Below are positions 2,320-19,709 of a stretch of DNA of 64,000 bases, in pieces. This DNA comes from a virus. The notes beneath the pieces were generated by a model. It saw nothing but the letters and a program-made list of their open reading frames with translations, had not been told where the DNA came from and did not search any database. Position 1 is the stretch's first letter. Every line of letters begins with the position of its first letter. The translations under genes and the position numbers were made by a program. The stretch is from positions 1-64,000 of IMG/VR virus record IMGVR_UViG_3300013006_000027; one strand, written 5' to 3'.

Positions 2320-2327
2320 CTATTAGT

Positions 2328-2370: not shown

Positions 2371-2411
2371 GAATAGCAATATTATAAATGAATAATTATA
2401 TATTTACTATG

Positions 2412-2418
2412 ATAAATA
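2412..2418 (+). promoter_or_regulatory. T4-like late promoter (gATAAATA)
   Basis: GATAAATA, close to the T4 late consensus TATAAATA, lies 16 bases before the start codon of the second fibre gene. Confidence 0.6.
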
Positions 2419-2434
2419 TATAAAAGATGAATAT

Positions 2435-5400
2435 ATGGCAGCAAGACAATTTACATTAAGAAATGCTGGAACAAGTAGTTTAGTTATACAGTCAGTGACT
2501 TTTAATGGTCTTTCTGGCATTGGTCATACCGCTAATTTGGTAAATTTAGGTGGTTCAAGCACCGAGACTGGTAATGCAACGTTGTCGTATACTCTTGCTT
2601 CAAATACTGTGCAAACTTTTACAGTAGATTATTATGACGCAGGCGCCGGCCTTGGAACATATACCGGTAATATAGTAATTGGTTGTAGCAATAATGTCAG
2701 TTCAACTACTATATCTAGTACAGTTCGGATTAATCCAACAACTACTACTACAACATCTACTACTACAACATCTACTACTACAACAACCACACGAGCACCT
2801 ACTACAACAACTACACGAGGACCTACTACAACAACTACAACAGCAGGACCAGGTACAACTACAACCACACGAGCACCTACAACTACAACTACAACTACAG
2901 CAGCTCCATTATCTGGAGCTAGGGCTATATTTGGATTTGGTAGCAATGGCTCTCTTAATTTTCTTGCTATAACTAATAAAGTATCTGATACTGGTGTTGT
3001 ACAGACCGATATTACTTATCCGTTTAGTACTCCAAGATATGGCGCGGCAGCAGCAGGATTTGGAGGAGATCAAGCTATATTTGGATTTGGTCAAATTAAA
3101 ATTGCTAACGTCTTCATCCCGACTTCTATAACCAATCTAGTAGATAATACTGGTGTTGTTGCTACTGATACTGAGGGTGTTGGTACTGCAAGATATAGTC
3201 TAGCAGCAACAGGATATGGCGGTGATAAGGCTATATTTGGATTTGGTGAAACTAGTGGTCCTACCGTTGTCTCCATGACCAACCTAGTAGATAATACAGG
3301 TGTTGTTGCCACTGATACTACAGGTGTTGGTACTCCAAGGCGAAGTTTGGCAGCAGCTAGTTATGGTTATGATAAGGCTATATTTGGATTTGGCGTTCGA
3401 ACTGGTGGGGCGACTTCTATAACCAATCTAGTATCTAATCTCGGTGTTGTTGCTACTGACCAAACCACATTAACTGGTACAGCAAGGCAAGGTCTAGCAG
3501 CCGCAGGATATGGGTATGATAAAGCTATATTTGGATTTGGTTGGGATATTAATCTTATTTATGTTTCAATAACCAATAAAGTAACTAATACCGGAGTAAT
3601 TGCCGCAGATATTACTAGTGTTGGTACTGCAAGGCAAGGTCTAGCAGGATCAGGCTATGGCAGTGATACAGCTATATTTGGATTTGGTAGTTCCAATGGT
3701 CCTGTTTATTATTCAATAACCAATCTAGTATCTAATCTTGGTGTTGTTGCTACTGATACTGCTGGTGTTGGTACTGCAAGGTCGTTTCTTGCAGCAGCAA
3801 GATTTGGTGCTACTGTAGTTCCACCTAGTACTACCACAACAACGGCAGGACCACCAGCTGGACTTAATGCTATATTTGGATTTGGACGGGTCGATGGAGA
3901 TGGTTATTTTTCAATGACCAATAAAGTATCTGATACTGGCGTTGTTGCTACAGATACTACTGGTGTTGGTACTGCAAGAAATAGGTTAGCAGCAGCAGGA
4001 TTTGGCGGTAATAAAGCTATATTTGGATTTGGAGACCGCGGTGGTGAATTTGGTACTTCCATAACTAATACTGTATCTGATCAAGGGGTTGTTGCTACAG
4101 ATACCGCTGGTGTTGGTACAGGAAGGATGGATCTAGCAGCAGCAGGATATGGCAGTGATAAAGCTATATTTGGATTTGGACATGTCAATTTCGCCGAGAC
4201 TGAGTTATCAATAACCAATCTAGTAGATAATACAGGTGTTGTTGCCACTGATACTACAGGTGTTGGTACTGCAAGATATGGTTTAGCAGCCGCAAGTTAT
4301 GGCGGTGATAAAGCTATATTTGGATTTGGACAGGCCAATTTAATCAATGTTTCAATGACTAATCTAGTATCTAATCTCGGTGTTGTTGCTACTGATACTA
4401 CTGGTGTTGGTACTGCAAGACATTATCTAGCCGCAGCAGGATATGGTAGTGGTCAGGCTATATTTGGATATGGTCTAATCAGTGGTTATGTTTCAGTAAC
4501 TAATTTAGTATCTGATCAAGGGGTTGTTGCTACAGATACCGCTGGTGTCGGCAGTGCAAGGGGTTATCTAGCAGCAGCAGGATTTGGTGGCGATCAGGCT
4601 ATTTTTGGATTTGGAACTGTTTCTGGCGGCGGTTCTGGTACTGCAATAACTAATCTAGTAAATAATCTCGGTGTTGTTGCTACTGATACAGCCGGTGTTG
4701 GTACTGGAAGATGGGGACTAGCAGCAGCAAGTTATGGCAGTGGATCCGCACCAATCAATACCACGACTACAACCACATCAGGATCTACAACTACTAGTAC
4801 AACCACATCAGGATCTACAACTACTAGTACAACCACATCAGGATCTACAACTACGACAACGGCAGCACCATCAACTGGATTTAGAGCTATATTTGGATTT
4901 GGGTATGTTTCATTTAGTACTAATATAACTAATCTAGTATCTAATACTGGTGTTGTTTCTACAGATACCGCTGGTGTTGGTACTGAAAGGGAAAGTCTAG
5001 CAGCAGCCGGGTATGGTGGTGATCGAGCTATATTTGGATTTGGAATAGATACGTCTGGGTACCTGTCGATGACTAATCTAGTATCTAATACTGGTGTTGT
5101 TGCTACTGATACTACTGGTGTTGGTACTACAAGATATTATCTAGCAGCAGCAGGATATGGCGGTGATAAAGCTATATTTGGATTTGGTACTACTGGTAGT
5201 AGAACTAATATAACCAACCTAGTATCTAATACTGGTGTTGTTGCGACAGATACCGCTGGTGTTGGTACTGCATTAAGTACTCTAGCAGCAGCCGGGTATG
5301 GTTATGATAAGGCTATATTTGGATTTGGAGTGGATACCTTATTTGTTACAGTTTCAATAACTAGTCTATTTTCTAATACTGGCATTTTTGTTAGTGAATC

Positions 5401-5749
5401 TACAAGTGTTGGTACTGCAAGGGAAAGTCTAGCAGCAGCAGGATTTGGAGGAGATCAAGCTATATTTGGATTTGGGTACTTGGGCGGTACCGGGGATTTG
5501 TCAATAACCAATCTAGTGTCTAATCTTGGTGTTGTTGCTGCTGACCAAACTGCATTAAATGGTTCTCCAAGATATAATCTAGCGGCAGCAGGGTATGGCG
5601 GTGATAAGGCTATATTTGGATATGGAAGAGCCTTTGGCGCCATTACCAACGTAACCAATCTAGTATCTAATCTTGGTGTTGTTGCTACAGATACTCTTGG
5701 TGTTGGTACTGCACGAGAACGTCTAGCAGCAGCAGGATATGGCACTTGA
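2435..5749 (+). CDS. Giant adhesin/tail-fibre protein with 18 propeller blades
   Basis: 1104 residues. The N-terminal about 105 residues are a beta-sandwich paralogous to the one in the first fibre gene (shared pattern IQSVTF..IGHTANLVNLGGSS). A Thr/Arg-rich linker follows, then three blocks of six AIFGFG repeats starting at bases 2924, 3869 and 4886. Linkers between blocks are Thr/Ser/Pro rich; the last contains three TTTSTTTSGS-like units. Eighteen blades in 6+6+6 fits three six-bladed kelch-like propellers. A late promoter precedes the start; the SD is weak (AAAGATG). Probable receptor-binding structural protein; exact placement on the virion is unknown. Confidence 0.88.
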   Translation: MAARQFTLRNAGTSSLVIQSVTFNGLSGIGHTANLVNLGGSSTETGNATLSYTLASNTVQTFTVDYYDAGAGLGTYTGNIVIGCSNNVSSTTISSTVRINPTTTTTTSTTTTSTTTTTTRAPTTTTTRGPTTTTTTAGPGTTTTTRAPTTTTTTTAAPLSGARAIFGFGSNGSLNFLAITNKVSDTGVVQTDITYPFSTPRYGAAAAGFGGDQAIFGFGQIKIANVFIPTSITNLVDNTGVVATDTEGVGTARYSLAATGYGGDKAIFGFGETSGPTVVSMTNLVDNTGVVATDTTGVGTPRRSLAAASYGYDKAIFGFGVRTGGATSITNLVSNLGVVATDQTTLTGTARQGLAAAGYGYDKAIFGFGWDINLIYVSITNKVTNTGVIAADITSVGTARQGLAGSGYGSDTAIFGFGSSNGPVYYSITNLVSNLGVVATDTAGVGTARSFLAAARFGATVVPPSTTTTTAGPPAGLNAIFGFGRVDGDGYFSMTNKVSDTGVVATDTTGVGTARNRLAAAGFGGNKAIFGFGDRGGEFGTSITNTVSDQGVVATDTAGVGTGRMDLAAAGYGSDKAIFGFGHVNFAETELSITNLVDNTGVVATDTTGVGTARYGLAAASYGGDKAIFGFGQANLINVSMTNLVSNLGVVATDTTGVGTARHYLAAAGYGSGQAIFGYGLISGYVSVTNLVSDQGVVATDTAGVGSARGYLAAAGFGGDQAIFGFGTVSGGGSGTAITNLVNNLGVVATDTAGVGTGRWGLAAASYGSGSAPINTTTTTTSGSTTTSTTTSGSTTTSTTTSGSTTTTTAAPSTGFRAIFGFGYVSFSTNITNLVSNTGVVSTDTAGVGTERESLAAAGYGGDRAIFGFGIDTSGYLSMTNLVSNTGVVATDTTGVGTTRYYLAAAGYGGDKAIFGFGTTGSRTNITNLVSNTGVVATDTAGVGTALSTLAAAGYGYDKAIFGFGVDTLFVTVSITSLFSNTGIFVSESTSVGTARESLAAAGFGGDQAIFGFGYLGGTGDLSITNLVSNLGVVAADQTALNGSPRYNLAAAGYGGDKAIFGYGRAFGAITNVTNLVSNLGVVATDTLGVGTARERLAAAGYGT
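2924..5746 (+). repeat. Three blocks of six kelch-like blade repeats
   Basis: Eighteen in-frame AIFGFG/AIFGYG repeats. Block boundaries are set by Thr-rich linkers near 3817-3868 and 4741-4885. One blade (about 5323-5460) has a diverged frame (ITSLFSNTGIFVSES). Confidence 0.9.
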
Positions 5750-5757
5750 TTATCTTT

Positions 5758-5800
5758 ATTCATACGCATATTGGATCATTCTAACAAGTTTGATATGAGA
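5758..5800 (+). repeat. 43-bp 3' flank repeat, copy 2
   Basis: Second copy of the element at 2328-2370, with 40 of 43 bases identical, again directly after a fibre-gene stop codon. Confidence 0.8.
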
Positions 5801-5920
5801 AAAATATGTTTCATGACTTTTAGATAGGCATATATATTCAATACAGCAAGGATCAATTCATATCATTTCTCTAAAAAGATATGCTATTGTCAATGCTAAC
5901 TTTTTATATAAGGAATATAT

Positions 5921-6562
5921 ATGCCATCAAAATTTAACTCTGAATTTAATTACCGTTACCTGGTCAACGGCGAAACACCTTGGGAAAAAATCAAAATCCT
6001 TAAAGGATTTTTGGAAGGTAGAAAACGTGCTGCTTGTTTGGAAGAAGTTGCCGCAAAAAAACGTTTGGCAAAAGAACTAGAATTGGAAAACTGCAAAAAT
6101 AACAATGCATTACCCCATGTTATCTTAAATTTAGAAGCAGAACTCTTAGAATCTAAATCTTTTGATGAAGGACAAAATGAAGCATGGGAATTAAATCGAC
6201 AAGAAATTGCATTTTTAGAAAGTTTTCTAGCAGAAATATATGAGGTCGCTGAACAAACTAGAATTCCCGGTTATACAGATGAACAAATGTTTGAAGCAAA
6301 TGCTGCATACGAGTTTACTGTTATGCTTGGAAAAGAAATTCAAGCAGAAATTATTGCAAATGGTCGACCATCACCTGCAAAATTAAGAAATGCTATGTCA
6401 AATCCATATACATTTGAAACTTTGAAGAGAGTAGGACTAGTTCCACAAGAAGCAGTCTTATTAGATACTACTGTTCAAAATCCATTAGAGTTGGCATTTA
6501 ATGAAGTTGTTACTGAAACTAAAAATTTACAAATTCAACATAGTAACGTAAAAACAGAGTAA
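5921..6562 (+). CDS. Hypothetical protein between fibre genes
   Basis: 213 residues, hydrophilic and largely helical by composition (many Glu/Lys/Leu), no signal peptide or membrane segment. AAGGA sits seven bases before the ATG. It lies between the second and third adhesin genes, so a chaperone, assembly or hinge role for the fibres is possible, but no diagnostic motif was recognised. The 170-bp gap before it carries the 43-bp repeat and no ATAAATA box. Confidence 0.75.
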   Translation: MPSKFNSEFNYRYLVNGETPWEKIKILKGFLEGRKRAACLEEVAAKKRLAKELELENCKNNNALPHVILNLEAELLESKSFDEGQNEAWELNRQEIAFLESFLAEIYEVAEQTRIPGYTDEQMFEANAAYEFTVMLGKEIQAEIIANGRPSPAKLRNAMSNPYTFETLKRVGLVPQEAVLLDTTVQNPLELAFNEVVTETKNLQIQHSNVKTE

Positions 6563-6625
6563 TCTTTGTACCTAAAAATCATTTGGTATAAAGATGTACT
6601 GTGCAGGTAAGATAATATAAATTTG

Positions 6626-6632
6626 ATAAATA
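6626..6632 (+). promoter_or_regulatory. T4-like late promoter (gATAAATA)
   Basis: GATAAATA 28 bases before the start codon of the third fibre gene; AGGAA is the likely SD of that gene. Confidence 0.6.
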
Positions 6633-6660
6633 TTCATAGAATATATTTCAGGAATATCCA

Positions 6661-9600
6661 ATGACCTATGCACAGTACAATCTTATAGAAGCATCTGATT
6701 TCAATGCCCTAATTGGTAACAATCCTGGTAATACAGCAAATACACTTAACACTACATGGGCCGTTGGTAACGGTAACGCTGGTTACGGACAGCAGCAGGT
6801 AGCAAATGTTGCTATAGGATATACTGTTGCTAATATTGATTGGGCTACTTTAATTAATAATACCGCAAACTCAGCGGCTCATCAAGGTTCTACAATTACT
6901 AGTGTTACTCCACCTTCTGGCGGAAATACTATAGCATATATTGCTGCGGTTACAAATAATTTAACTACAATTTATAATAATCGTCTTAATGCAGTAGCGC
7001 AAGGGCTGATCCCTGCATCTAACACTGTTACTAGTGGTAACACGTGGACTAGTAATATAGTATTCACTCAGACAGCATCTTTTGCGAATGGTGATGCGGC
7101 TCGATACTTTTTTAATGCAGGTGGACAGTTAGTTATTACCTGTGCTCATCCAACTGGTAGTACAATTAACAATATATTCCATGGTTTAGCTGCAAACATA
7201 GGCAATGTTACATTAAGTTCACCTACAACAGGTGTTATAAATGTTGCCGGTAATTCGTTTAGTGGTATTAGTAAATTAGGAGGAAGTGGACAAACACCTA
7301 GTATACTTACTAACAATGGGTATTATGCGTTGACAACTAGTAACGCAAATGTATTTACACAAATTGATGGTGTGGATTCTACTTTTAGTTCTAGCTATAT
7401 TAATATAAAAGTTAAATCTAATGGAACTCAAGGTAGTTACGGAGATGCAGGAAATGTTATAACATTCTATACTACATGGCAGGAACTACCAGTTGGTACG
7501 ACAGTATCAGCAGGTACGGCAACTACGCTAACTGCGATTTATCCATCAAGTAATAATATTGCCAACACTTGGGGTACGGTAACTGTTCAAGGATCATCAC
7601 CGATCACACCAACAACTACTACTACAACTACAACAGGCCCGGGCACTACAACTACAACTACAGCAGCTCCATCACCAGCTCCAGCTGGATCTGCTATATT
7701 TGGATTTGGATTTGGTACTAAACCGAGTGGTCAAGGTGCACTCAACATGACCAATCTAGTAAATTATTTTGGTGTTGTTGCTACAGATACCACTGGTGTT
7801 GGTACTGAAAGATCTGGTCTAGCAGCAGCAGGATATGGTGTTGGTCAGGCTATATTTGGATTTGGTTACACCGGTGGTGGTACTTATTTTTCGATCACCA
7901 ATCTAGTATCTAGTGCTGGTGTTGTTGCTACAGATACGACTGGTGTTGGTACTGCAAGGCGAGAACTAGCAGCAGCAGGATATGGTAGTGGTCAGGCTAT
8001 ATTTGGATTTGGTGAAGACGCCGGCTCGGTTGCCGTTTCAATAACCAACCTAGTAGATAATACAGGTGTTGTTGCTACTGATACTACTGGTGTTGGTACT
8101 GCAAGGAATGGACTAGCAGCAGCCGAATATGGTGTTGGTCAGGCTATATTTGGATTTGGAAGTTCTTCTGGTGGGTATTATACGAATATAACCAATCTAG
8201 TAAATAATCTTGGTGTTGTTGCTACTGACCAAACTGCATTAACTGGTACTATAAGATCTAGACTAGCAGCCGCAGGATATGGCGGTAATAAAGCTATATT
8301 TGGATTTGGAAATGATGGGGTATCTCATGTTTCAATTACCAATCTAGTATCTAATCTTGGTGTTGTTGCTGCTAACCAAACCGCATTAACTGGCACAGCA
8401 AGATCTAATCTAGCAGCAGCAGGATATGGTGGTGATAAAGCAATATTTGGATTTGGAGCTTTTGGTAGCGGTTTAACCCGAACTTCTATAACCAATCTAG
8501 TATCTAATCTTGGTGTTGTTGCTGCTGATGTTACTGGGGTTGGTACTGCAAGGCAGGACCTTGCAGCAGCAGGATATGGTAGTGGACCCCCACCATTGAC
8601 TACAACTACAACTACAGCAGCTCCAACACCTACACCTGGATCTGCTATATTTGGATTTGGATTGAATAATGTCGGCGATGAAACATCAATAACCAATCTA
8701 GTAAATAATAACGGTGTCGTTAGTAATGATGTTACTAGTGTTGGTACTGCAAGGCGAAGTCCAGCAGCGGCAGGATATGGCACTGATAAGGCTATATTTG
8801 GATTTGGATTTGCAAATCTACTAAGTTACATCGCAATAACTAATCTAGTATCTAATCTTGGTGTGGTTGCCACAGATACTGCTGGTGTTGGTACTCCAAG
8901 ATCTGCTTTAGCAGCAGCAGGATATGGTGGTGATAAAGCTATATTTGGATTTGGTAATGATAATAGTGGTGCACCTTTTTCAATGACCAATCTAGTAAAT
9001 AATCTTGGTGTGGTTGCTGCTGATACCACTGGTGTTGGTACGGCAAGATATGGTCTAGCAGCAGCAGGATTTGGTGTTGGTCAAGCTATATTTGGATTTG
9101 GAAATACTGGCATTGCTGTTTCAATAACCAATCTAGTAGATAATAACGGTGTTATTGTTTCTGAAACTGCTGGTGTTGGTACTGCAAGATATGGTCTAGC
9201 AGCAGCAGGGTATGATAGTGATAAAGCTATATTTGGATTTGGTAGATCATCTAGTTTAACATCAATAACCAATAAAGTATCTAATCTTGGTGTCGTGCAG
9301 GCTGATGTTACCAATCTTAGCTCTACAGCAAGAGATGCTCTAGCAGCAGCAGGATACGGTAGTGGTCAAGCTATATTTGGATTTGGTAGAGTAGGCCCCT
9401 TATCGGGAACTGCTTCGGTTCGAATAATCAATCTAGTAAATAACCTAGGTACTATTGTTAGTGAATCTGCTGGTGTTGGTACTCCAAGGTCTGGACTAGC
9501 AGCAGCAGGGTATGGTGGTGTACCTCCTTCGCCACCTACAACTACAACTACAACTACAATAGGCCCAGGCACTACAACTACTACTACAACCGCAAGTCCA

Positions 9601-11604
9601 GGACCAACTAGAGATGGAAAAGCTATATTTGGATTTGGATTTGCTGGCGGCTCTGATGTTTCAATAACCAATAAAGTAAATAATATTGGTACTGTTACTA
9701 CAGATACTACAGGTGTTGGTACTGCAAGAGTAATACTAGCAGCCGCAAGTTATGGCGGTGATAAAGCTATATTTGGATTTGGACGGGCCGGTGGCATCGA
9801 TGTTTCAATAACCAACCTAGTATCTAATCTTGGTGTTGTTGCCACAGATACAACTGGTGTTGGTACTGCAAGATATGGACTAGCAGCAGCAGGGTATGGT
9901 GGTGATAAAGCTATATTTGGATTTGGGGTGGGATCGCTTGCGTCGTCCACAATAATTAATCTAGTATCTAATACTGGTGTAGTTGCTACAGATACGGCTG
10001 GTGTTGGTACGGCAAGATCTCAACTAGCAGCAGCCGGCTATGGTTATGATAAAGCTATATTTGGATTTGGAGCAAGTGGGGTTGGTTTATTCTCAATAAC
10101 CAATCTAGTAAATAATCTTGGTGTTGTTGCTACAGATACTGCTGGTGTTGGTACTCCGAGGTATGGTCTAGCAGCAGCAGGATATGGTACAGACAAGGCA
10201 ATATTTGGATTTGGTGTTACTAGTAATCCAACTAGTATAACCAATCTAGTATCTAATCTTGGTGTTGTTATTGTTGATCAAGCCGCATTAACTGGTACTG
10301 CAAGATATGGACTAGCAGCAGCAGGATATGGCGGTGATAAAGCTATATTTGGGTTTGGTTTTACCAACATTTCTCTTGGCAACCCTACTAACGTAACCAA
10401 TCTAATAACTAATACTGGTGTGGTTGGCAATGATGTCACTGGTGTTGGTACTGCAAGGTCAGGTCTAGCAGCAGCCGGATATGATAATGTACAACCACTG
10501 AATTATACATTTCCGATACCTGGTACTTACTCTGTAGCACCTATACCCGGCTACCCCTATCTTGCACTAGAATTGGTTGGTGCGGGGGGCGGTGGAGGCG
10601 GCACTGATGGATACGGCGCTAGTTATGCAGGTGGTGGCGGTGGTTCTGGTGGGTATTCTTTTGATATTTTAGATACTACCGGAACAAGTGGTAACTTCAC
10701 TGTAACTGTAGGCGCTGGCGGAACTGCTGCTAGTGCTAGCCTCGACGGTACTGTTTATCCAGGTGTACCTGGCATAACTAGAACTGGTACAAAAAATGCT
10801 GGAACCGGAGGCATATCTTCACTACTATACGGTTTAACAAATTATTATACTGCTCTAGGAGGAGTTGGAGGTACCGGTAATACAGGTAGTAACGATGATG
10901 GTGTGGGCGGAGCTGGCGGTATAGGTAGAACTATTTCTGGTAATCCTGGAGTCACCCCTTCTACTCCGATAGATATTTATCCAGCAGCAGCAGGAGGCGC
11001 TAGCGTATATGGTGGATTTGGTACAGGTGGAGCTAGTCAAAATAGTAACTTTACTTCTAATTCAGATGCAAACTTGCCACAAGCCGGTGGTAATGGTTAT
11101 GTAAGAATGCAATTCTCTAGCACTCTACCTAGTACAACTACTACAACTACTACTGCTGCACCAAGTGGTACTATCAATACTGCATTGTTTACTTACTTAA
11201 CAAATAATAGTTTTTATGGATCAATTTCTGGTGGAACCGATGCTAGCACATATATTTTATTTTATTCTAACGGTAACTTTGCAATTCTTGATCAATCAGG
11301 AACTAATTTAACCAATGGAGCCCCAACTAATCAATATTGGTTCAGTGGGGGATTTGTAACTCCGGGATTAGTCCATTGGTTCAGATTTACACAAACTGCT
11401 GTGAATGGTTATACCGCTACAGCTACAACTGGTTGGATTCAACCAGGAGTCGCCGGGATCGCAGCAGCATATGTAGCAAATAATTATAATGCAACTACAG
11501 ACGCAACTTATACCATAGAAGTTGCGTCAGATTCATCAGGTACTAACATCGTAGCAACCGCTACCGGGGTGTTAATATCCGCAACACAGTACCCTCCCCC
11601 GTAA
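6661..11604 (+). CDS. Giant multidomain tail-fibre/adhesin with 18 blades
   Basis: 1647 residues. An N-terminal domain of about 315 residues (start MTYAQYNLIEASDFNALIG) is unlike the other two fibres and may anchor the protein to the virion. Three blocks of six AIFGFG repeats follow at about residues 345-641, 662-952 and 988-1276, with Thr/Pro linkers. A Gly-rich domain (about residues 1280-1485, GGGGGG and GGAGG runs) follows, then another poly-Thr linker and a C-terminal beta-rich domain (about 150 residues, ending QYPPP). Gly-rich domains are common near the tips of phage adhesins. It is preceded by a late promoter and an AGGAA SD. Confidence 0.88.
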   Translation: MTYAQYNLIEASDFNALIGNNPGNTANTLNTTWAVGNGNAGYGQQQVANVAIGYTVANIDWATLINNTANSAAHQGSTITSVTPPSGGNTIAYIAAVTNNLTTIYNNRLNAVAQGLIPASNTVTSGNTWTSNIVFTQTASFANGDAARYFFNAGGQLVITCAHPTGSTINNIFHGLAANIGNVTLSSPTTGVINVAGNSFSGISKLGGSGQTPSILTNNGYYALTTSNANVFTQIDGVDSTFSSSYINIKVKSNGTQGSYGDAGNVITFYTTWQELPVGTTVSAGTATTLTAIYPSSNNIANTWGTVTVQGSSPITPTTTTTTTTGPGTTTTTTAAPSPAPAGSAIFGFGFGTKPSGQGALNMTNLVNYFGVVATDTTGVGTERSGLAAAGYGVGQAIFGFGYTGGGTYFSITNLVSSAGVVATDTTGVGTARRELAAAGYGSGQAIFGFGEDAGSVAVSITNLVDNTGVVATDTTGVGTARNGLAAAEYGVGQAIFGFGSSSGGYYTNITNLVNNLGVVATDQTALTGTIRSRLAAAGYGGNKAIFGFGNDGVSHVSITNLVSNLGVVAANQTALTGTARSNLAAAGYGGDKAIFGFGAFGSGLTRTSITNLVSNLGVVAADVTGVGTARQDLAAAGYGSGPPPLTTTTTTAAPTPTPGSAIFGFGLNNVGDETSITNLVNNNGVVSNDVTSVGTARRSPAAAGYGTDKAIFGFGFANLLSYIAITNLVSNLGVVATDTAGVGTPRSALAAAGYGGDKAIFGFGNDNSGAPFSMTNLVNNLGVVAADTTGVGTARYGLAAAGFGVGQAIFGFGNTGIAVSITNLVDNNGVIVSETAGVGTARYGLAAAGYDSDKAIFGFGRSSSLTSITNKVSNLGVVQADVTNLSSTARDALAAAGYGSGQAIFGFGRVGPLSGTASVRIINLVNNLGTIVSESAGVGTPRSGLAAAGYGGVPPSPPTTTTTTTIGPGTTTTTTTASPGPTRDGKAIFGFGFAGGSDVSITNKVNNIGTVTTDTTGVGTARVILAAASYGGDKAIFGFGRAGGIDVSITNLVSNLGVVATDTTGVGTARYGLAAAGYGGDKAIFGFGVGSLASSTIINLVSNTGVVATDTAGVGTARSQLAAAGYGYDKAIFGFGASGVGLFSITNLVNNLGVVATDTAGVGTPRYGLAAAGYGTDKAIFGFGVTSNPTSITNLVSNLGVVIVDQAALTGTARYGLAAAGYGGDKAIFGFGFTNISLGNPTNVTNLITNTGVVGNDVTGVGTARSGLAAAGYDNVQPLNYTFPIPGTYSVAPIPGYPYLALELVGAGGGGGGTDGYGASYAGGGGGSGGYSFDILDTTGTSGNFTVTVGAGGTAASASLDGTVYPGVPGITRTGTKNAGTGGISSLLYGLTNYYTALGGVGGTGNTGSNDDGVGGAGGIGRTISGNPGVTPSTPIDIYPAAAGGASVYGGFGTGGASQNSNFTSNSDANLPQAGGNGYVRMQFSSTLPSTTTTTTTAAPSGTINTALFTYLTNNSFYGSISGGTDASTYILFYSNGNFAILDQSGTNLTNGAPTNQYWFSGGFVTPGLVHWFRFTQTAVNGYTATATTGWIQPGVAGIAAAYVANNYNATTDATYTIEVASDSSGTNIVATATGVLISATQYPPP
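7693..10485 (+). repeat. Three blocks of six kelch-like blade repeats
   Basis: Eighteen in-frame repeats, in blocks starting at 7693, 8644 and 9622. Thr-rich linkers are at about 8584-8643 and 9518-9621. Same 48-51 residue unit as in the two upstream genes. Confidence 0.9.
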
Positions 11605-12653: not shown

Positions 12654-12971
12654 ATGCAAGCAAAAATTTTATCTATATTACTTTTGTTTCCCTTAAGTGC
12701 GATAGCACAACACCATCATCATGGTATGAGACATTTTGATCATCATCAAGCTCATCGTGGAGGATGGGGTTGGGTAGCACCTGCTGTCATCGGCGGGGCT
12801 GTAGTATATGGGTTAACTCGTCCTTCTCCTGTAATAGTTCAACAACCAGTCTACATTCAACAGCCTCCCGTTGTTGTTCAGCCTCAGGTTGTAATTATTG
12901 ATGGAGTAGAGTATACTAAACAAACTATGATAGTAAATGGTGTATCACAAGAAGTTTTGATACGCCAGTAA
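12654..12971 (+). CDS. Secreted His-rich small protein
   Basis: 105 residues. A signal peptide (MQAKILSILLLFPLSAIAQ) has a likely signal peptidase I site after AIA. A His-rich stretch (HHHHGM..HFDHHQAH) follows, then a Gly/Ala hydrophobic segment (WGWVAPAVIGGAVVYGL), a Val/Gln/Pro stretch, and a C-terminal IDGVEYTKQTMIVNG strand pair. Likely periplasmic or envelope-associated, possibly metal binding. A late promoter and AAAGGAG SD are present. No named family recognised. Confidence 0.75.
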   Translation: MQAKILSILLLFPLSAIAQHHHHGMRHFDHHQAHRGGWGWVAPAVIGGAVVYGLTRPSPVIVQQPVYIQQPPVVVQPQVVIIDGVEYTKQTMIVNGVSQEVLIRQ

Positions 12972-12985
12972 AGAATTGTTGTAAA

Positions 12986-13288
12986 AACCGAAAGGAAAGA
13001 AGCAAGTTAAAAGACGGGCAAGACTCGGGTTCGACTCCCGACCGGTCCACCAAAAGCATACTAGAGTGATGCTGGGGAAGAGTAATAGTCAGCGGTTAAT
13101 AAATCTTCCAAGTATGCTTTTGATGGGCCGGCCATGGTATCGATTGACGGATGAGTAGATGAGTGGACAACACGATAGGCGATGGACGTAATCCAAGCAA
13201 AATCTATAAATGCCAACGATGAGGTATTTGCTATAGCCGCATGAGGCTGAGCCGGAGTAGGAAAGACTCTGTAAAATAACTAACCTGT
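12986..13288 (+). ncRNA. ssrA: Circularly permuted (two-piece) tmRNA
   Basis: Acceptor piece first: T-stem TCGGG (13025-13029), loop TTCGACT, CCCGA, then CCGGTCC (13042-13048), discriminator A and encoded CCA (13050-13052). Coding piece next: GGGCCGG (13125-13131) pairs with CCGGTCC over 7 bp, placing a G.U at position 3:70, the alanine identity pair of tmRNA. The spacer between them folds by a perfect 11-bp stem (13052-13062 with 13111-13121). Tag frame 13212-13244 reads ANDEVFAIAA-stop. Permuted tmRNAs are known in Alphaproteobacteria, some Betaproteobacteria and some cyanobacteria. The 5' and 3' ends of the precursor are estimates. Confidence 0.9.
13212..13244 (+). other. tmRNA proteolysis-tag reading frame
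   Basis: Resume codon probably GCC (13212), giving ANDEVFAIAA then TGA, the same length as the E. coli tag ANDENYALAA and with a typical small hydrophobic end. An in-frame GCA at 13197 would give a 15-residue tag, A-K-S-I-N before the same ten residues. AAAATCTATAAAT upstream resembles the A/U-rich positioning sequence. Confidence 0.8.
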
Positions 13289-13319
13289 AATAGGCCCGAA
13301 AGGGCCTATTATTTTGTTG
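13289..13319 (+). terminator. Rho-independent terminator after tmRNA
   Basis: Nine-bp stem AATAGGCCC / GGGCCTATT with a GAAA tetraloop, followed by ATTTTGTTG. Confidence 0.85.
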
Positions 13320-13342
13320 TTTTTCCGCAACAAACCCAAAAT

Positions 13343-13371
13343 TTGACATTAATTGGGTATAAGCGTATACT
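13343..13371 (+). promoter_or_regulatory. Sigma70-type promoter
   Basis: TTGACA (13343-13348), 17-bp spacer, TATACT (13366-13371). It serves the gene starting at 13402. Confidence 0.8.
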
Positions 13372-13401
13372 GTATCTATAGTGAGAAACAAGGAGAGCGA
13401 G

Positions 13402-13773
13402 ATGAGCGAACTGACTTACAAGACTTGGGAAGAGTACACTCCGCTTGAGCAGGCTGCAATGACCTACTGGGATATGTACAAGGACGCTTACAATTTCCGC
13501 CCCCGTAGTGTGGACACGTCCAAATGGACACTAGCAGACTTCCAAAAGGAGTTCGAAACCCTGCAGTTTATCATCAACCGCAATGAGGCCCAACGTATCG
13601 AGGACGAGGCTGCGGCTGTCGCCCGTTTCGAAGCCCGTATCGCTAGCATCATCCAATTGGGTGCTAAGGATCGTGCAATGGCACTGCGTTGGATTCACGA
13701 GGCTGAGGACACGGACGGCGACGATGAGTACCTCTGCTACACGGTTGGCATCCCTTATGGATATTTCAAATGA
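13402..13773 (+). CDS. Hypothetical phage protein (YTPLEQAAMTYWDMYKDAY type)
   Basis: 123 residues from ATG 13402. An earlier in-frame GTG at 13381 is rejected because the promoter places the transcript start near 13378 and AAGGAG sits seven bases before 13402. The N-terminal stretch around YWDMYKDAYNFRPR looks like a widespread small-protein motif in phages and plasmids; the middle is a charged helix. Function unknown. First gene of a two-gene unit: its stop overlaps the next start. Confidence 0.75.
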   Translation: MSELTYKTWEEYTPLEQAAMTYWDMYKDAYNFRPRSVDTSKWTLADFQKEFETLQFIINRNEAQRIEDEAAAVARFEARIASIIQLGAKDRAMALRWIHEAEDTDGDDEYLCYTVGIPYGYFK

Positions 13774-13883
13774 CATTCACTTTAACTACCCCAACTGGTA
13801 AGGTCATGCAGTTCTATTTGCAGGCTACGGCTGAATTGTATCAGATACTTTACCAAGGCACAATCACTAAGGCTTCTGCTTGA
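13770..13883 (+). CDS. Small 37-residue hypothetical protein
   Basis: ATG overlaps the previous stop (ATGA). The product begins MTFTLTTPTGKVMQFYLQA and ends TKASA. Its stop codon lies inside the -35 box of the next promoter. It is supported only by translational coupling and an intact frame. Confidence 0.5.
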   Translation: MTFTLTTPTGKVMQFYLQATAELYQILYQGTITKASA

Positions 13884-13908
13884 CATTAATTCAGGCAGTT
13901 GCTATAAT
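13880..13908 (+). promoter_or_regulatory. Sigma70-type promoter of the MoxR gene
   Basis: TTGACA (13880-13885), 17 bp, TATAAT (13903-13908). It shares TTGACATTAATT with the promoter at 13343. Confidence 0.85.
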
Positions 13909-13942
13909 CTTTTTATCGTAGTTTTTTCAACAGGAGTAAGAA

Positions 13943-15043
13943 ATGGCTCAAGTATCTGACAATCTCACCGTTACTAGTGTTCAGGCCCGTAAAGCAATTC
14001 TCAAGGCTTTCAAGGTCAAACGTCCCGTGTTTCTCTGGGGCCCTCCCGGTATCGGTAAGTCTGAGGTTGTTTCTGAAATCACCGAGGAGCTTGGTGGTTT
14101 TATGATTGATTTGCGTATGGCACAAATGGAACCCACTGATATTCGTGGTATTCCTTTCTTCAATAAAGACATTGGCAAGATGGACTGGGCTCCCCCGGTT
14201 GATCTCCCTGACGAGGAACTTGCTAGTCAGTACCCTATCGTCTGTCTGTTCTTGGACGAGATGAATTCGGCTGCCCCTGCTGTACAGGCTGCAGGATATC
14301 AGTTGATTCTCAATCGCCGTGTTGGTAAGTACAAACTTCCTGACAACGTGGTTATTGTTGCGGCAGGCAACCGTGATAGCGATAAGGGTGTTACTTATCG
14401 TATGCCGATGCCCCTTGCTAATCGGTTCTTGCATATTGAAATGCGACCCGATTTTGCTTCGTGGCAGAACTGGGCAGTTAACAAAGGCATCCATAAGGAT
14501 GTGGTTGGTTATCTGTCTTTCGCTAAACAGGATCTCTATGATTTTGATTCAAAGTCCTCTAGCCGCGCATTCGCTACTCCCCGTAGCTGGTGCTTTGTCA
14601 GCGATTTGCTGAATGATGACGAAGACACGGACTCTGATACACTGTTCAACTTGGTCGCAGGTTCTGTAGGTGAAGGTCTTGCTGTTAAGTTTATGGCACA
14701 CCGTAAGGTTGCAGGTCAGATGCCCGAGCCTAGCGATATTCTCGCAGGTAAGGTCAAAGAACTCCGTGTCAAGGAAGTGTCGGCAATGTACTCCCTCACG
14801 ATTAGCCTGTGCTATGAATTGAAGGACGCTCTTGACAACAAACGTGTCAACACCAAACAATTCCACGAAATGGCTGATAATTTCTTCAGCTACATCATGG
14901 CAAACTTTGAAACTGAGTTGGTCGTAATGGGTGCGAAGGTTGCTCTGAAAACGTATCGTCTTCCGATCGAACCCAGTCAGTTGAAACATTTTGATGACTT
15001 CCACAAGAAGTACGGCAAGTACATTGTAGAAGCAGGTAATTAA
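13943..15043 (+). CDS. MoxR-family AAA+ ATPase
   Basis: 366 residues. Walker A GPPGIGKS (33-40), Walker B CLFLDEMN (101-108), sensor-1 AAGNRDSD (140-147) and an ANRF arginine-finger region near 160 match MoxR/RavA-type AAA+ proteins. These act as ATP-driven chaperones that work with VWA-domain partners, and the next gene encodes such a partner. It has its own sigma70 promoter and SD (CAGGAG) and ends at a strong terminator, so it is a single-gene transcript. A role in phage infection is not established. Confidence 0.9.
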   Translation: MAQVSDNLTVTSVQARKAILKAFKVKRPVFLWGPPGIGKSEVVSEITEELGGFMIDLRMAQMEPTDIRGIPFFNKDIGKMDWAPPVDLPDEELASQYPIVCLFLDEMNSAAPAVQAAGYQLILNRRVGKYKLPDNVVIVAAGNRDSDKGVTYRMPMPLANRFLHIEMRPDFASWQNWAVNKGIHKDVVGYLSFAKQDLYDFDSKSSSRAFATPRSWCFVSDLLNDDEDTDSDTLFNLVAGSVGEGLAVKFMAHRKVAGQMPEPSDILAGKVKELRVKEVSAMYSLTISLCYELKDALDNKRVNTKQFHEMADNFFSYIMANFETELVVMGAKVALKTYRLPIEPSQLKHFDDFHKKYGKYIVEAGN

Positions 15044-15044
15044 T

Positions 15045-15069
15045 AAAAGGGGAGGCAACTCCCTTTTTT
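15045..15069 (+). terminator. Rho-independent terminator
   Basis: Ten-bp stem AAAAGGGGAG / CTCCCTTTTT (one G.U) with a GCAA loop and a T run. Confidence 0.85.
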
Positions 15070-15072
15070 CAC

Positions 15073-15101
15073 TTGCAATTAAATACGGTATGTGTTATAA
15101 T
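15073..15101 (+). promoter_or_regulatory. Sigma70-type promoter of the VWA gene
   Basis: TTGCAA (15073-15078), 17 bp, TATAAT (15096-15101). Confidence 0.7.
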
Positions 15102-15129
15102 ATAACATATATACGATAAAGGAGTAGGT

Positions 15130-16416
15130 ATGAGTGATGTAGTCGCCCCAACTAAAAAGCGTAAACGTAGTAAAAAATTTGAAAATTTGGTCGGCCCTAC
15201 CGATGCCAAAGTAGACTTCAATGCCCGTGAGCGGTTGGTAACTGCCCGCATTGGTCTGCTTCTCCGTCATTCATTCTTTGGTAACCTTGCAACCCGTATG
15301 CAATTGGTTAACGCCGATGAATGGTGCTCTACAGCCGCTACTGACGGATTGAAATTCTATTACAATTCTCGGTTTATTATGATGCTCAAGCCCAAGGAAG
15401 TTGAATTCTTGGTTGGGCATGAAGTACTTCATGTAGTATACGATCATATTGGTCGTCGAGGCAACCGTGATCCCCAACTTTGGAACATTGCTGATGACTA
15501 CGCGGTTAATGCCGACTTGAAACGGCACAAGGTCGGTGAGTTTATCAAAACGGTTCCTTGCTTGTATGAAGCAAAATATGACGGTAAGAGTGCCGAAGAA
15601 ATCTATGATGACCTTTATGAGAAGGCTGAAAAGATTAACATTGAGGATCATATCGACCAAATGATTGATGATCATATGGAAGGTGAGGGTTCTGAGTCTG
15701 AAGGTGACGGCGAAGAAATTGACGGTAGTGGTAAGGTCAAAGGTCGTCCGAAAATGTCTGGTGAGGAACGTGAACGTGTTCGCCAAGAAGTAAAACAGGC
15801 TATCATCAATGCGGCTTCTTCTGCTGAAGCAGGTTCTATTCCTAAAGGTGTTGAGCGGCTGATCAAACAGCATACTAACCCAATAATGCCTTGGCGTGAA
15901 TTGATTCAGACTAATTTGACAAGTGCTATTCGGACTGACTTTAGCTTTATGCGTCCTAATCGTCGAGGTTGGCATATGGACGCTATCATGCCTGGGATGA
16001 CCCCAGGTGAAGAAATCGATGTTGTAGTTAGCCTTGATATGTCGGGTTCTATTACCGATAAACAAGCTCAGGCATTCTTGGGTGAGATTGCCGGTATGAT
16101 GGATGCGTTTGATGGATATCGGGTGCATGTATTTTGTTTTGATACAGAAACTTACAATCCACAAGACTTTACCAGCGAGAACTTGGATACAATTGATTCA
16201 TATGAACCAGTTGGTGGAGGTGGTACTGATTTTGATTGCATCTTCAGTTATCTTAAAGAAAATGCAATTGTGCCCAAACGTTTGATTGTGTTCACGGATG
16301 GCTACCCTGGTGGTAGCTGGGGAGATCCTGACTATTGTGATACCACATGGATCATTCATGGTGACAAGGATCCTAATCCCCCATTTGGGACGTTTGCACT
16401 ATATGACGGGGCATGA
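15130..16416 (+). CDS. VWA-like protein with putative metallopeptidase domain
   Basis: 428 residues. The N-terminal half has a zincin-like HEVLH motif (97-101), as in the putative metallopeptidase family usually fused to a VWA-like domain (DUF2201 type). An acidic linker (about 185-215) follows, then a VWA domain with MIDAS DMSGS (303-307), the GGGTDF threonine site and FTDG. This architecture is the usual partner of MoxR ATPases, and the MoxR gene lies directly upstream. Likely a cytoplasmic ATPase-driven remodelling or metal-insertion module. SD is AAAGGAG. Confidence 0.88.
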   Translation: MSDVVAPTKKRKRSKKFENLVGPTDAKVDFNARERLVTARIGLLLRHSFFGNLATRMQLVNADEWCSTAATDGLKFYYNSRFIMMLKPKEVEFLVGHEVLHVVYDHIGRRGNRDPQLWNIADDYAVNADLKRHKVGEFIKTVPCLYEAKYDGKSAEEIYDDLYEKAEKINIEDHIDQMIDDHMEGEGSESEGDGEEIDGSGKVKGRPKMSGEERERVRQEVKQAIINAASSAEAGSIPKGVERLIKQHTNPIMPWRELIQTNLTSAIRTDFSFMRPNRRGWHMDAIMPGMTPGEEIDVVVSLDMSGSITDKQAQAFLGEIAGMMDAFDGYRVHVFCFDTETYNPQDFTSENLDTIDSYEPVGGGGTDFDCIFSYLKENAIVPKRLIVFTDGYPGGSWGDPDYCDTTWIIHGDKDPNPPFGTFALYDGA

Positions 16417-16651
16417 TCTAATATATGAATCCCCCGATAAGGGGGAAACTATATATGCTAGAAAAGTAGGATCTACTGACAGGGTGTTAATTTCAATGAG
16501 TGAAAAGGCTTGGTCTCGTATCAATGAACAAGAGCAAGTCGAGATTTGGAAAGATATTAGAGGATTAGCAAAAACCAATCCATCGTTGAATGATGTATTG
16601 GATAGATTGTTAGTAGTTTATAACCTTATCAAAAAAGAAAATTCACTATGA
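16403..16651 (+). CDS. Small conserved phage protein, function unknown
   Basis: 82 residues from ATG 16403, overlapping the VWA gene end by 14 bases. Earlier in-frame starts back to 16286 read through the VWA gene in another frame and are rejected. The product opens HDLIYESPDKGETIYARKVG and ends in a Leu-rich helix. The start overlap suggests translational coupling. No function can be assigned. Confidence 0.65.
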   Translation: MTGHDLIYESPDKGETIYARKVGSTDRVLISMSEKAWSRINEQEQVEIWKDIRGLAKTNPSLNDVLDRLLVVYNLIKKENSL

Positions 16652-17055
16652 TGTATATTGGTACAAGCTTGGGTGGTTGCTTGCGTAGCATCCTAGATGG
16701 CGAAGTATCCGAGGACCGTGTTTTGACGATTATTACTAGGACTCACTGCGAAACTTACGATTCGTTGGTCAACGTAGTTAAATTGTATTACTCTGAAGGT
16801 AATAACTATGCTAGAAATCCTCAGCGGTACGACTTAACAAAATTTGATTTTGAGACCGTGTTGGATTTAGCTAGTAGGCTTTATAATTCAGGTAGAATTC
16901 ATCAACCTAGGCTTTACTCAGATAGTGATTATTTGCCTATTGCCTTTGCTTTTCAAGAACTTTGGCTCCAAGTAGTACCAACTAATACTAATTCTTCACC
17001 TGCGGTGATTGATGCGTATGAAAAATACAAGATGTTAGATTCTCTAACCCGATGA
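16648..17055 (+). CDS. Hypothetical phage protein
   Basis: 135 residues, overlapping the previous stop (ATGATG). Begins MMYIGTSLGGCLRSILDGEV; soluble, mixed alpha/beta composition, no catalytic motif recognised. Part of the VWA operon by tight spacing. Confidence 0.7.
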   Translation: MMYIGTSLGGCLRSILDGEVSEDRVLTIITRTHCETYDSLVNVVKLYYSEGNNYARNPQRYDLTKFDFETVLDLASRLYNSGRIHQPRLYSDSDYLPIAFAFQELWLQVVPTNTNSSPAVIDAYEKYKMLDSLTR

Positions 17056-17285
17056 TAGAGATTGATCCTGTTGTTTGGTTTAGTGATCGGGAGGTTAATT
17101 TTAAACCTCCACATTTCGTTATGACCAACACTCATATTACTGAAGAATCTAAATTTTGGATTTTAAAAAATTTAAAAGGTAGATTTTCATTAATTGAAAA
17201 TGGTTATATAACAAGGAATAAAAAGTTTGTACCTGCTTTTGAAGATCCACAAGAAGCAATTCTTTATGAGTTAGCTTGGTCTTGA
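17052..17285 (+). CDS. Small hypothetical protein with LYELAW-type tail
   Basis: 77 residues, overlapping the previous stop. It ends EDPQEAILYELAWS, a tail resembling the FxLRWG ends of the tandem family at 41584-42919. A Lys/Asn-rich middle is predicted beta. Function unknown. Confidence 0.7.
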   Translation: MIEIDPVVWFSDREVNFKPPHFVMTNTHITEESKFWILKNLKGRFSLIENGYITRNKKFVPAFEDPQEAILYELAWS

Positions 17286-17345
17286 TAAATTTTTAGTATA
17301 TAGTAAAAATCAATTAAATAATGATATAATCAAGGAGAATATGAT

Positions 17346-18026
17346 ATGAGTTTTTTAAGACATGTTGGTAAACACGGTGATCGCAAAGTTGCAGTAATCT
17401 TCCGTGAAGTGCCCGGTGAATCACATATGTGCCTAGTCACATATACAGAAACGTTGAATATGCATATTCATGATCCAATTATTAAATGTATTGAAAGTGA
17501 CATTGGTCAGAACAGTCAAAATCTAGCTGATGCATTACATCGTAGCTATACCAAAGACGGTAAACCAATTTTACAAACACTACACCTTGAAGGACAGTTG
17601 AAAAAAGTTCAAACTGCTCAAATTATAATGACTCCTCAACCTAATACTCAAATTAGATTGGATGAACTGAATAAGATTTTAGATGAGATGCAACAAGGTG
17701 AAGAAGCCGTTAAGCGATTAGCTGAAATGGATAAGAGCATGGGAATGCAAACCAAGTCTGAAGTTATTAGAAAGATGCGTGGTCCACAAACACAACCTGC
17801 ATATCCAACTGGTGATGTAATGGGCGATCAGCAATTGGCTAAACAGCGGTTAGATCAAGCAATTAAGATGGAAAGTGAAGCACAAGGTCTTATGTCTGAA
17901 GCAAAACGGTTAAAGGCAGAGGCAAGGTCACTTGATCCTAATGTAGCACCTACTGGGGAAGCATCAGTTGTTGTGGAGGTCCCATCACCAAAAGCAAAAA
18001 AATCAAGAGCTAAAGCGGTTGCATAA
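17346..18026 (+). CDS. Conserved T4-like phage protein (MSFLRHVGKHGDRK type)
   Basis: 226 residues. The N-terminal about 115 residues form a conserved-looking globular domain. A helical middle (LDELNKILDEMQQG) follows, then a long coiled-coil-like stretch and a Lys/Ala-rich tail (PKAKKSRAKAVA). I recognise the N-terminal block as recurrent in marine T4-like phages but know no function. AAGGAG lies before the start, and a lone TATAAT at 17325 without a good -35 may be a weak promoter. The first gene of an operon leading to DHFR and ThyA. Confidence 0.75.
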   Translation: MSFLRHVGKHGDRKVAVIFREVPGESHMCLVTYTETLNMHIHDPIIKCIESDIGQNSQNLADALHRSYTKDGKPILQTLHLEGQLKKVQTAQIIMTPQPNTQIRLDELNKILDEMQQGEEAVKRLAEMDKSMGMQTKSEVIRKMRGPQTQPAYPTGDVMGDQQLAKQRLDQAIKMESEAQGLMSEAKRLKAEARSLDPNVAPTGEASVVVEVPSPKAKKSRAKAVA

Positions 18027-18322
18027 TGTCACCTGAATTCATTGAAAAATGGGAACACATCCTCGAGGATGTTGAAAAACAAAAAATTCCTATTGGCTTT
18101 ATTAAAAAAGTAGTTATCAAACTAATAGGAAAGAAACAGCAAACTCTGAATATTGAGAAATTTTTAAATCAAGGTTTAGAACCAGAGCAAGTAGAAGATT
18201 TAGTTAATAAAAGATTAACTGAATTGGATGATTTAGTTACTAGCGTAGAATTTATTCTTAATGTACAGAGTATTGCGGACACTGTCCAACCTGAAACGGA
18301 CAGATTATTAGGTAATTTATGA
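18026..18322 (+). CDS. Hypothetical phage protein
   Basis: 98 residues, helical, with start overlapping the previous stop (TAATG). Pattern IEKFLNQGLEPEQVEDLVNKRL looks like a helix-turn-helix bundle rather than an enzyme. It ends four bases into DHFR (ATGA), so it is translated with that operon. Confidence 0.7.
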   Translation: MSPEFIEKWEHILEDVEKQKIPIGFIKKVVIKLIGKKQQTLNIEKFLNQGLEPEQVEDLVNKRLTELDDLVTSVEFILNVQSIADTVQPETDRLLGNL

Positions 18323-18792
18323 GACTCATTGTTGCCTGTGATCCTAAAGGTGGAATAGGCTATAAGAACAAATTGCCCTGGAGTAAAATCGAGGGCGATT
18401 TGCCAAGATTCAAAAGATTAACTCAGGATAAAACTGTAGTTATGGGTCGCAATACTTGGGATAGTCTTCCAGTAAAACCTTTACCTAACAGATACAATGT
18501 TGTAGTAACTACAAAACCAATTATACTACCTAACAATGTTAAAACAATTGCTCATTTAGATGACTTGAAATATTTTTATGAGCCATGGATAATGGGAGGA
18601 GCAAAGTTAATACAAACATGTTGGGAAAGAATTACTAAAATTCACTTGACCACTACCTTTGCCGAATATGCTTGTGATACTTTTATAGACTTGAAAAAAT
18701 TACGGGGGGAGTTTAGAATTTCACATGAAGAGGTTCGTAGTGACCATACATATGAAATTTGGGACAGAGATCATCCTGATTATTGGAAATAA
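18319..18792 (+). CDS. frd: Dihydrofolate reductase
   Basis: 157 residues, normal DHFR length. N-terminal MRLIVACDPKGGIGYKNKLPW carries the Met20-loop pattern GGIGxxxxLPW. VVMGRNTWDSLP and the late WIMGGAKLI glycine pair match NADPH-binding motifs. Makes tetrahydrofolate from dihydrofolate, recycling the product of the thymidylate synthase encoded immediately downstream. T4 carries the same frd-td pair. Start overlaps the previous stop by ATGA. Confidence 0.95.
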   Translation: MRLIVACDPKGGIGYKNKLPWSKIEGDLPRFKRLTQDKTVVMGRNTWDSLPVKPLPNRYNVVVTTKPIILPNNVKTIAHLDDLKYFYEPWIMGGAKLIQTCWERITKIHLTTTFAEYACDTFIDLKKLRGEFRISHEEVRSDHTYEIWDRDHPDYWK

Positions 18793-18794
18793 AA

Positions 18795-19709
18795 ATGCAA
18801 AATTATCATGATTTGCTTAAAGATATACTAGAGAACGGCGAAACAAAAGACGATAGAACAGGTGTAGGTACAGTATCTGTCTTTGGTAGACAATTAAGAT
18901 TTGATTTACGCAAGGGTTTTCCTGCTGTTACTACTAAAAAGTTAGCATGGAAAGCCTGTGTAGGTGAGTTGTTATGGTTTATTGAAGGTAGTGGTGATGA
19001 ACGTAGATTAGCTGAAATTACACATGGTAGTAAAGATGGTACAGTTACCATATGGACTCCAAATGCATTATCAAGTTATTGGAAACCTAAAGCTAAGTTT
19101 GAAGGTGATTTAGGCAGGGTATATGGTGTACAATGGCGAGATTGGAAACATAATACTCTTAAATCTTCCAAACATTATGTTCAACATAGTAAATCTGATA
19201 AAACTCATTATGATTCAACAGTAATGGAAAGGTCAGTTGACCAATTAGCAAACTTATTAGAAGGATTAAAGACAGACCCTAATGGTCGTAGACATATTCT
19301 TAGTGCATTGAATGTCGGTGAATTAGATCAAATGGCATTGCCACCTTGTCATGTTATGAGCCAATACTATGTGAACAAGAACCGTGAATTAAGTTGTCAT
19401 ATGTACCAAAGATCAGTGGATGTTTTCCTAGGATTGCCCTTTAATATCGCTAGTTATGCTCTACTAACTCATTTGATTGCTCATCATTGTGGTTACAAAG
19501 TTGGGGAATTAATTATCAGTACTGGTGATACACATATCTATACCAATCACATTGATCAAGTTAAGGAACAATTGACCCGAGAACCATTGCCCTTACCTAC
19601 ATTGATGTTACCTGTAGAAAAGAAAGATATTTTTGAAATGACCATGAATGATATTCATTTAGAAGGGTATACCAGTCATGGCCCAATCAAAGCGGAAATG
19701 GCTGTATGA
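18795..19709 (+). CDS. td: Thymidylate synthase
   Basis: 304 residues from ATG 18795 (an upstream in-frame TTG at 18783 overlaps DHFR and is less likely; GGAAA precedes the ATG). Motifs: DDRTGVGT near the start, LGRVYGVQWRDW, PNGRRHI, catalytic Cys185 in LPPCHVMSQYYV, the QRSVDVFLGLPFNIASYALL block and GDTHIYTNH. ThyA type: dUMP plus methylene-tetrahydrofolate gives dTMP plus dihydrofolate. It carries a Lys/Ser/His-rich insertion after the RDW motif. Works with the adjacent DHFR. Confidence 0.96.
   Translation: MQNYHDLLKDILENGETKDDRTGVGTVSVFGRQLRFDLRKGFPAVTTKKLAWKACVGELLWFIEGSGDERRLAEITHGSKDGTVTIWTPNALSSYWKPKAKFEGDLGRVYGVQWRDWKHNTLKSSKHYVQHSKSDKTHYDSTVMERSVDQLANLLEGLKTDPNGRRHILSALNVGELDQMALPPCHVMSQYYVNKNRELSCHMYQRSVDVFLGLPFNIASYALLTHLIAHHCGYKVGELIISTGDTHIYTNHIDQVKEQLTREPLPLPTLMLPVEKKDIFEMTMNDIHLEGYTSHGPIKAEMAV

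What the first reader, a model, noticed from the sequence alone, without database searches (positions are those of the whole stretch)
12986..13310. Phage-encoded circularly permuted tmRNA
Seen directly: a T-arm and acceptor 3' strand with encoded CCA (13025-13052) come before the 5' acceptor strand GGGCCGG (13125-13131). They pair over 7 bp with G.U at 3:70, then a tag frame ANDEVFAIAA-stop and a strong terminator follow. Known: permuted two-piece tmRNAs exist in Alphaproteobacteria, some Betaproteobacteria and some cyanobacteria. Phage tmRNAs known to me are mostly one-piece. A virus carrying the permuted form could redirect ribosome rescue or tag host proteins during infection.
Basis: partly seen in the sequence, partly recalled or inferred. 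Interest (0 to 1): 0.92.

Follow-up and report, generated by a model that had tools for sequence, protein, structure and literature searches.

The report
Jumbo-phage permuted (two-piece) tmRNA gene
This virus of aquatic bacteria carries its own complete copy of a bacterial ribosome-rescue RNA in the rearranged "two-piece" form; such viral copies were already known, but here it is nearly universal among related giant phages, and its tRNA-like half has changed as a coordinated block relative to its closest kin.

Summary
ARAGORN calls a permuted tmRNA at 12960-13335 with tag ANDEVFAIAA. Rfam tmRNA_permuted scores 109.6 bits and beta_tmRNA 106.1, both above cut-off. Acceptor strands 13042-13048 and 13125-13131 pair 7/7 with G3:U70; an intrinsic terminator follows.

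The gene is real and under selection. Two jumbo-phage contigs that differ from each other carry 91-93% alike syntenic homologues. In these the acceptor changes by three, and the T stem by two, two-sided compensatory pairs. In the phage clade 30 of 45 metagenomic records carry a permuted tmRNA, including 9 of 10 contigs over 200 kb. No SmpB is encoded, so the RNA must use the host's.

Buchholz et al. 2022 (PMC9004378) reported 53 two-piece tmRNAs in phage genomes, and one capped scan here returned about 100 more. It is a new member of a known kind.

Two things look fresh. The tRNA-like domain alone has been exchanged between close relatives, while the intervening sequence and mRNA part stayed 95-96% identical. 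Elbow positions also co-switch: U55 with G18, G55 with A18 (8/8 against 0/12).

The parts
12960..13335 (+). permuted tmRNA gene (ssrA), ARAGORN extent
   Evidence: ARAGORN tmRNA* with tag ANDEVFAIAA; RF04321 12994-13244 109.6 bits and RF01850 12943-13314 106.1 bits
13025..13041 (+). T arm UCGGG-UUCGACU-CCCGA
   Evidence: sequence, fold, two compensatory stem pairs against L123/L244
13042..13052 (+). 3' acceptor strand CCGGUCC, discriminator A, encoded CCA
   Evidence: pairs 7/7 with 13125-13131
13053..13124 (+). intervening sequence, presumably removed; closed by a 10-bp hairpin 13053-13062/13111-13120
   Evidence: fold; 96% identical in relatives
13125..13131 (+). 5' acceptor strand GGGCCGG; G13127:U13046 is the G3:U70 alanine identity pair
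   Evidence: covariation
13132..13143 (+). D-loop region CCAUGGUAUCGA (G18, G19)
   Evidence: RF04321 alignment; 18-55 comparison
13212..13244 (+). tag reading frame ANDEVFAIAA-stop, resume codon GCC
   Evidence: ARAGORN; relative has ANDEVFSLAA
13287..13312 (+). intrinsic terminator, 11-bp stem
   Evidence: conserved in L123 at 3345-3370

Best explanation
It is a functional, phage-maintained ssrA gene of the betaproteobacterial permuted type. One transcript, ended by the 13287 terminator, is folded by its acceptor stem and intervening hairpin. Host tRNA-processing enzymes cut out the 72-nt intervening sequence, giving a two-piece tmRNA. AlaRS charges it through G3:U70 (A-CCA end encoded). With host SmpB and EF-Tu it enters ribosomes stalled on broken messages, switches translation to the ANDEVFAIAA frame, frees the ribosome and marks the peptide for proteolysis. 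The likely benefit is keeping ribosomes available while host and phage mRNAs are being degraded during a long jumbo-phage infection. Shown by sequence: anatomy, covariation, conservation, absence of SmpB. Inferred: processing, charging, tagging and benefit.
For: ARAGORN and two Rfam models agree. There are five two-sided compensatory changes in the acceptor and T stems between the window and two relatives that differ from each other. Motif-anchored acceptors selected without pairing: 11 of 12 distinct pairs are 7/7, mean 6.75 against 5.21 for shuffles, maximum 6.17. G3:U70 is in 126 of 145 parsed phage candidates. 9 of 10 clade contigs over 200 kb keep a permuted tmRNA. Tags are nearly all A-N-starting and end LAA, IAA or MAA. 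No SmpB.
Against: No expression, processing or charging data. No clear own promoter: the nearest match is 9/12 at 12889-12917, inside the upstream gene, and the upstream sequence is not conserved in L123. The host is unknown, so compatibility with its SmpB is untested. 15 of 45 related records lack a hit, many being fragments.
Confidence: 0.87

Rival explanations
1. Relic of host ssrA picked up at an attachment site or by imprecise excision, with no function in the phage.
For: Host ssrA is a common integration site (PMC9004378 discusses this origin).
Against: The gene is complete, with compensatory changes, intact tag and terminator, and is kept in most large relatives. No integrase turned up among the window proteins scanned, though not every ORF was scanned.
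Confidence: 0.04
2. Decoy or inhibitor: the RNA titrates host SmpB or AlaRS rather than rescuing ribosomes, as proposed for the tag-less tRNA-like domain of mycobacteriophage DS6A.
For: DS6A precedent, reported as inhibiting endogenous tmRNA; the phage has no SmpB of its own.
Against: The full mRNA-like part and a conserved proteolysis tag are kept; a decoy would need neither.
Confidence: 0.07
3. Retargeted tagging: the phage tmRNA mainly marks host or phage proteins with a tag of different fate from the host's, steering proteolysis.
For: The exact tag ANDEVFAIAA is in none of 84,980 species genomes (exact reverse-translated pattern). Tags vary widely among phages.
Against: The tag matches the Rfam beta pattern closely (ANDEHFAMAA, read from the model consensus), and the closest relatives use SLAA or ALAA endings, so no consistent altered signal is seen.
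Confidence: 0.1
4. A bacterial stretch misassembled into or binned with a phage contig.
For: The source is a metagenome.
Against: Terminase, UvsX, primase-helicase and ssDNA-binding genes on the same contig; syntenic homologues in 335-kb and 200-kb viral contigs.
Confidence: 0.01

Closest known systems
Betaproteobacterial permuted tmRNA (Rfam RF01850 / RF04321)
   Same: Permuted order, A-CCA, G3:U70, tag of type ANDExFAxAA, terminator; 106 and 110 bits
   Different: Phage-borne; acceptor GGGCCGG/CCGGUCC instead of consensus GGGGGUG/CACCUCC
Two-piece ssrA of Methylophilales phage Melnitz and pelagiphages (PMC9004378)
   Same: Phage-encoded permuted tmRNA, aquatic phages
   Different: Melnitz has an alphaproteobacterial-type gene linked to a glutamine riboswitch; here a beta-type gene in jumbo phages with terminase and ATPase about 48-50% identical to Pseudomonas phage PA5oct
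tmRNA of Brevundimonas phage Bajun and of Sinorhizobium jumbo phages (Phosso, AP-J-162)
   Same: Large phages with an annotated or detectable tmRNA
   Different: The Bajun and Phosso genes fall below the beta-model cut-off; Phosso's match is much longer (603 bp)
One-piece phage tmRNAs (Bacillus phage G, mycobacteriophages Bxz1, Wildcat)
   Same: Phage ssrA
   Different: One-piece form from general knowledge; not examined here

Membership tests
circularly permuted tmRNA | 3' tRNA piece encoded before 5' acceptor strand, both joining in one acceptor stem | tested here: met
circularly permuted tmRNA | Covariance-model score above curated threshold | tested here: met
   RF04321 109.6 (cut-off 47), RF01850 106.1 (cut-off 84)
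circularly permuted tmRNA | G3:U70 alanine identity pair and encoded A-CCA | tested here: met
circularly permuted tmRNA | Tag reading frame with stop, ending in an AA-type degron | tested here: met
   ANDEVFAIAA
circularly permuted tmRNA | Acceptor strands covary across relatives | tested here: met
   three acceptor and two T-stem compensatory pairs; motif-anchored test
circularly permuted tmRNA | Transcript processed into two RNA pieces | not testable with these tools
   needs RNA-end mapping
circularly permuted tmRNA | SmpB-dependent trans-translation | not testable with these tools
   no SmpB in 17 phage records incl. own; host not identified
betaproteobacterial subtype | Best-scoring clade model is RF01850 | tested here: met
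   only the best of the clan is listed: beta_tmRNA
betaproteobacterial subtype | Groups with host beta sequences in a tree | not tested

The most novel reading that the evidence does not exclude
In this jumbo-phage clade the tmRNA behaves as a modular gene. The two separated segments forming the tRNA-like domain (acceptor, T arm, D loop, with the alternative A18/G55 elbow) are exchanged or co-evolve as a block, while the intervening sequence and tag domain are left alone, perhaps to fit different host SmpB/AlaRS or to evade host RNases that attack the tRNA-like part.
Probability: 0.3. Interest if true: 0.62.

Novelty: new member of a known kind. Interest (0 to 1): 0.42.

Why it matters
It shows that a betaproteobacterial-type permuted tmRNA is a near-constant gene of an aquatic jumbo-phage clade rather than a sporadic pick-up, so ribosome rescue is probably a regular need of these phages. 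The window/L123/L244 trio gives a rare, clean case of concerted change in the two halves of a split RNA domain. The G55/A18 class escapes ARAGORN (nothing reported in L240, L244 or L245), so surveys relying on it, including published phage counts, are likely to be too low.

Tried and rejected
Exact-tag and resume-region scans of 84,980 bacterial genomes returned nothing, so host tmRNAs could not be fetched and origin could not be treed. The TGCGA T-loop scan gave no locus that my parser accepted as a tmRNA. The near-identical contig L242 is 100% identical over 12.3 kb with the same coordinates as the window, so I do not count it as independent. A literature search for an A18-G55 pair found nothing in the held library. 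The first acceptor parser required pairing and is biased; the motif-anchored version was used for the covariation claim.

Full report
WHAT IS THERE. The stretch 12960-13335 is a complete permuted tmRNA gene. Reading along the + strand: a 5' extension; the T arm (13025-13041); the 3' acceptor strand, discriminator A and encoded CCA (13042-13052); a 72-nt intervening sequence (13053-13124); the 5' acceptor strand (13125-13131); a D-loop region (13132-13143); the mRNA-like part with tag ANDEVFAIAA-stop (13212-13244); and an 11-bp intrinsic terminator (13287-13312). ARAGORN, Rfam RF04321 (109.6 bits) and RF01850 (106.1 bits, betaproteobacterial type) agree. The acceptor pairs 7/7 with G3:U70. The intervening sequence folds into a hairpin whose 10-bp stem brings both acceptor strands together. 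No other tRNA gene was found in the window.

WHOSE GENOME. The window is part of a 78,427-base IMG/VR viral record. Its terminase and MoxR-like ATPase are 48-50% identical to those of Pseudomonas phage PA5oct and 43-48% identical to those of Sinorhizobium phage Phosso. The stretch 12970-19048 aligns at 86% with a 335-kb viral contig whose ATPase is 99% identical. The record is therefore very probably a fragment of a jumbo-phage genome. The host was not identified; the beta-type RNA suggests a betaproteobacterium, which is an inference.

IS IT UNDER SELECTION. The closest relatives, L123/L240 (335-kb contig) and L244 (200-kb contig), are about 92% identical to each other and carry the tmRNA in the same place. 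Against the window their acceptor is GGGGGUG/CACCUCC rather than GGGCCGG/CCGGUCC: pairs 4, 5 and 6 all change on both sides, G3:U70 is kept, and T-stem pairs 49 and 50 also change on both sides. In a wider set taken by sequence motif alone, 11 of 12 distinct acceptor combinations pair fully, mean 6.75 against 5.21 when shuffled. Permuted tmRNAs occur in 30 of 45 IMG/VR records of the ATPase clade and in 9 of the 10 contigs over 200 kb (11 of 18, 19 of 27). Their position in the genome varies outside the closest relatives.

HOW IT WORKS. The best reading is ordinary trans-translation with host factors: alanine charging through G3:U70, host SmpB (no SmpB gene in 17 phage records, including this one and several of 286-364 kb), resumption at GCC and release at the tag's stop. 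The tag is of the standard beta kind; relatives end SLAA or ALAA. Retargeting of proteolysis has no specific support, although the exact tag is in no genome of the 84,980-species set. A decoy role like the tag-less DS6A RNA is disfavoured because the tag and mRNA part are kept.

THE UNEXPECTED PART. Among 278 pairs of phage tmRNAs whose mRNA parts are at least 75% alike, the tRNA-like segments are normally the best conserved (T-arm/acceptor mean 92% against mRNA part 80%). The window/L123 pair is the extreme exception: mRNA part 95% and intervening sequence 96%, but T arm plus acceptor 62% and 5' acceptor plus D region 70%. By region, 16 of 43 positions in the tRNA-like segments differ against 14 of 286 elsewhere in the gene (Fisher p=2e-8). 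The two changed tracts lie on either side of the unchanged intervening sequence. The L123 form is found in two contigs that differ from each other, so it is not one assembly error; the window form is seen in one population only. A further co-change runs through the elbow. In parsed tmRNAs not chosen by D-loop sequence, all 8 with G55 have AG in the D loop and none of 12 with U55 do (p=8e-6), on four different acceptor backgrounds. Some rows are related, so the p-value is optimistic. Whether this arose by recombination or by stepwise compensation is open; the more distant L241, L243, L245, L246 and L247 have the L123-like form, which hints that the window form is the derived one.

KNOWN OR NEW. 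Buchholz et al. 2022 (PMC9004378) counted 402 phages with tmRNA among 18,146 genomes, with 53 of the unique structures two-piece and mostly from aquatic phages. One capped pattern scan here returned about 100 more viral contigs, and 113 distinct permuted sequences were parsed in all. The tmRNA database of 2025 lists 79 unique phage sequences. This is a new member of a known kind. The fresh elements are its near-constant presence in one jumbo-phage clade, the block exchange of the tRNA-like domain, and the G55/A18 class that ARAGORN often does not report.

Noticed in passing
L123:3079-3201 and L244:10071-10193 against window 13020-13143: Only the tRNA-like segments of the tmRNA differ strongly between close relatives; the 72-nt intervening sequence between them is unchanged.
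   Followed up: partly
L221, L225, L227, L239, L144, L309, L310, L312: Class of phage permuted tmRNAs with T-loop UGCRA (G55) always accompanied by A18 in the D loop; in the close set L240, L244 and L245 get no ARAGORN call.
   Followed up: partly
L007, L024, L028, L111, L059, L224, L230, L234, L236 and others: Two families of phage permuted tmRNAs with tags of 28-31 residues (ANADTFDFSAMSFTGNTV... and ...GEVTVSGKNVKFSAR...LAV or FAV); codon differences include many synonymous ones, so they look translated.
   Followed up: partly
L107 (G055:10119-10548 and 17164-17505): One 28-kb viral contig with two different beta-type permuted tmRNAs about 7 kb apart, tags ANDSVYALAA and ANDEVYTLAA.
   Followed up: no
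window 511-10330: Long ORFs upstream of the tmRNA share a DNA repeat of about 150 bases in dozens of copies (seen in the BLAST); they look like giant repeat proteins, and the two scanned had no PHROG match.
   Followed up: no
window 13343-13371 and 13880-13908: Near-perfect sigma-70 promoters (TTGACA-17-TATACT and TTGACA-17-TATAAT) before the two genes after the tmRNA, conserved in L123 at 3401 and 3938.
   Followed up: no
window 12971/12970 junction; L123:1711-3029: In L123 and L244 extra DNA (in L123 a 383-aa gene, 1874-3025) lies between the upstream gene and the tmRNA; homology with the window resumes exactly where the tmRNA region starts.
   Followed up: partly
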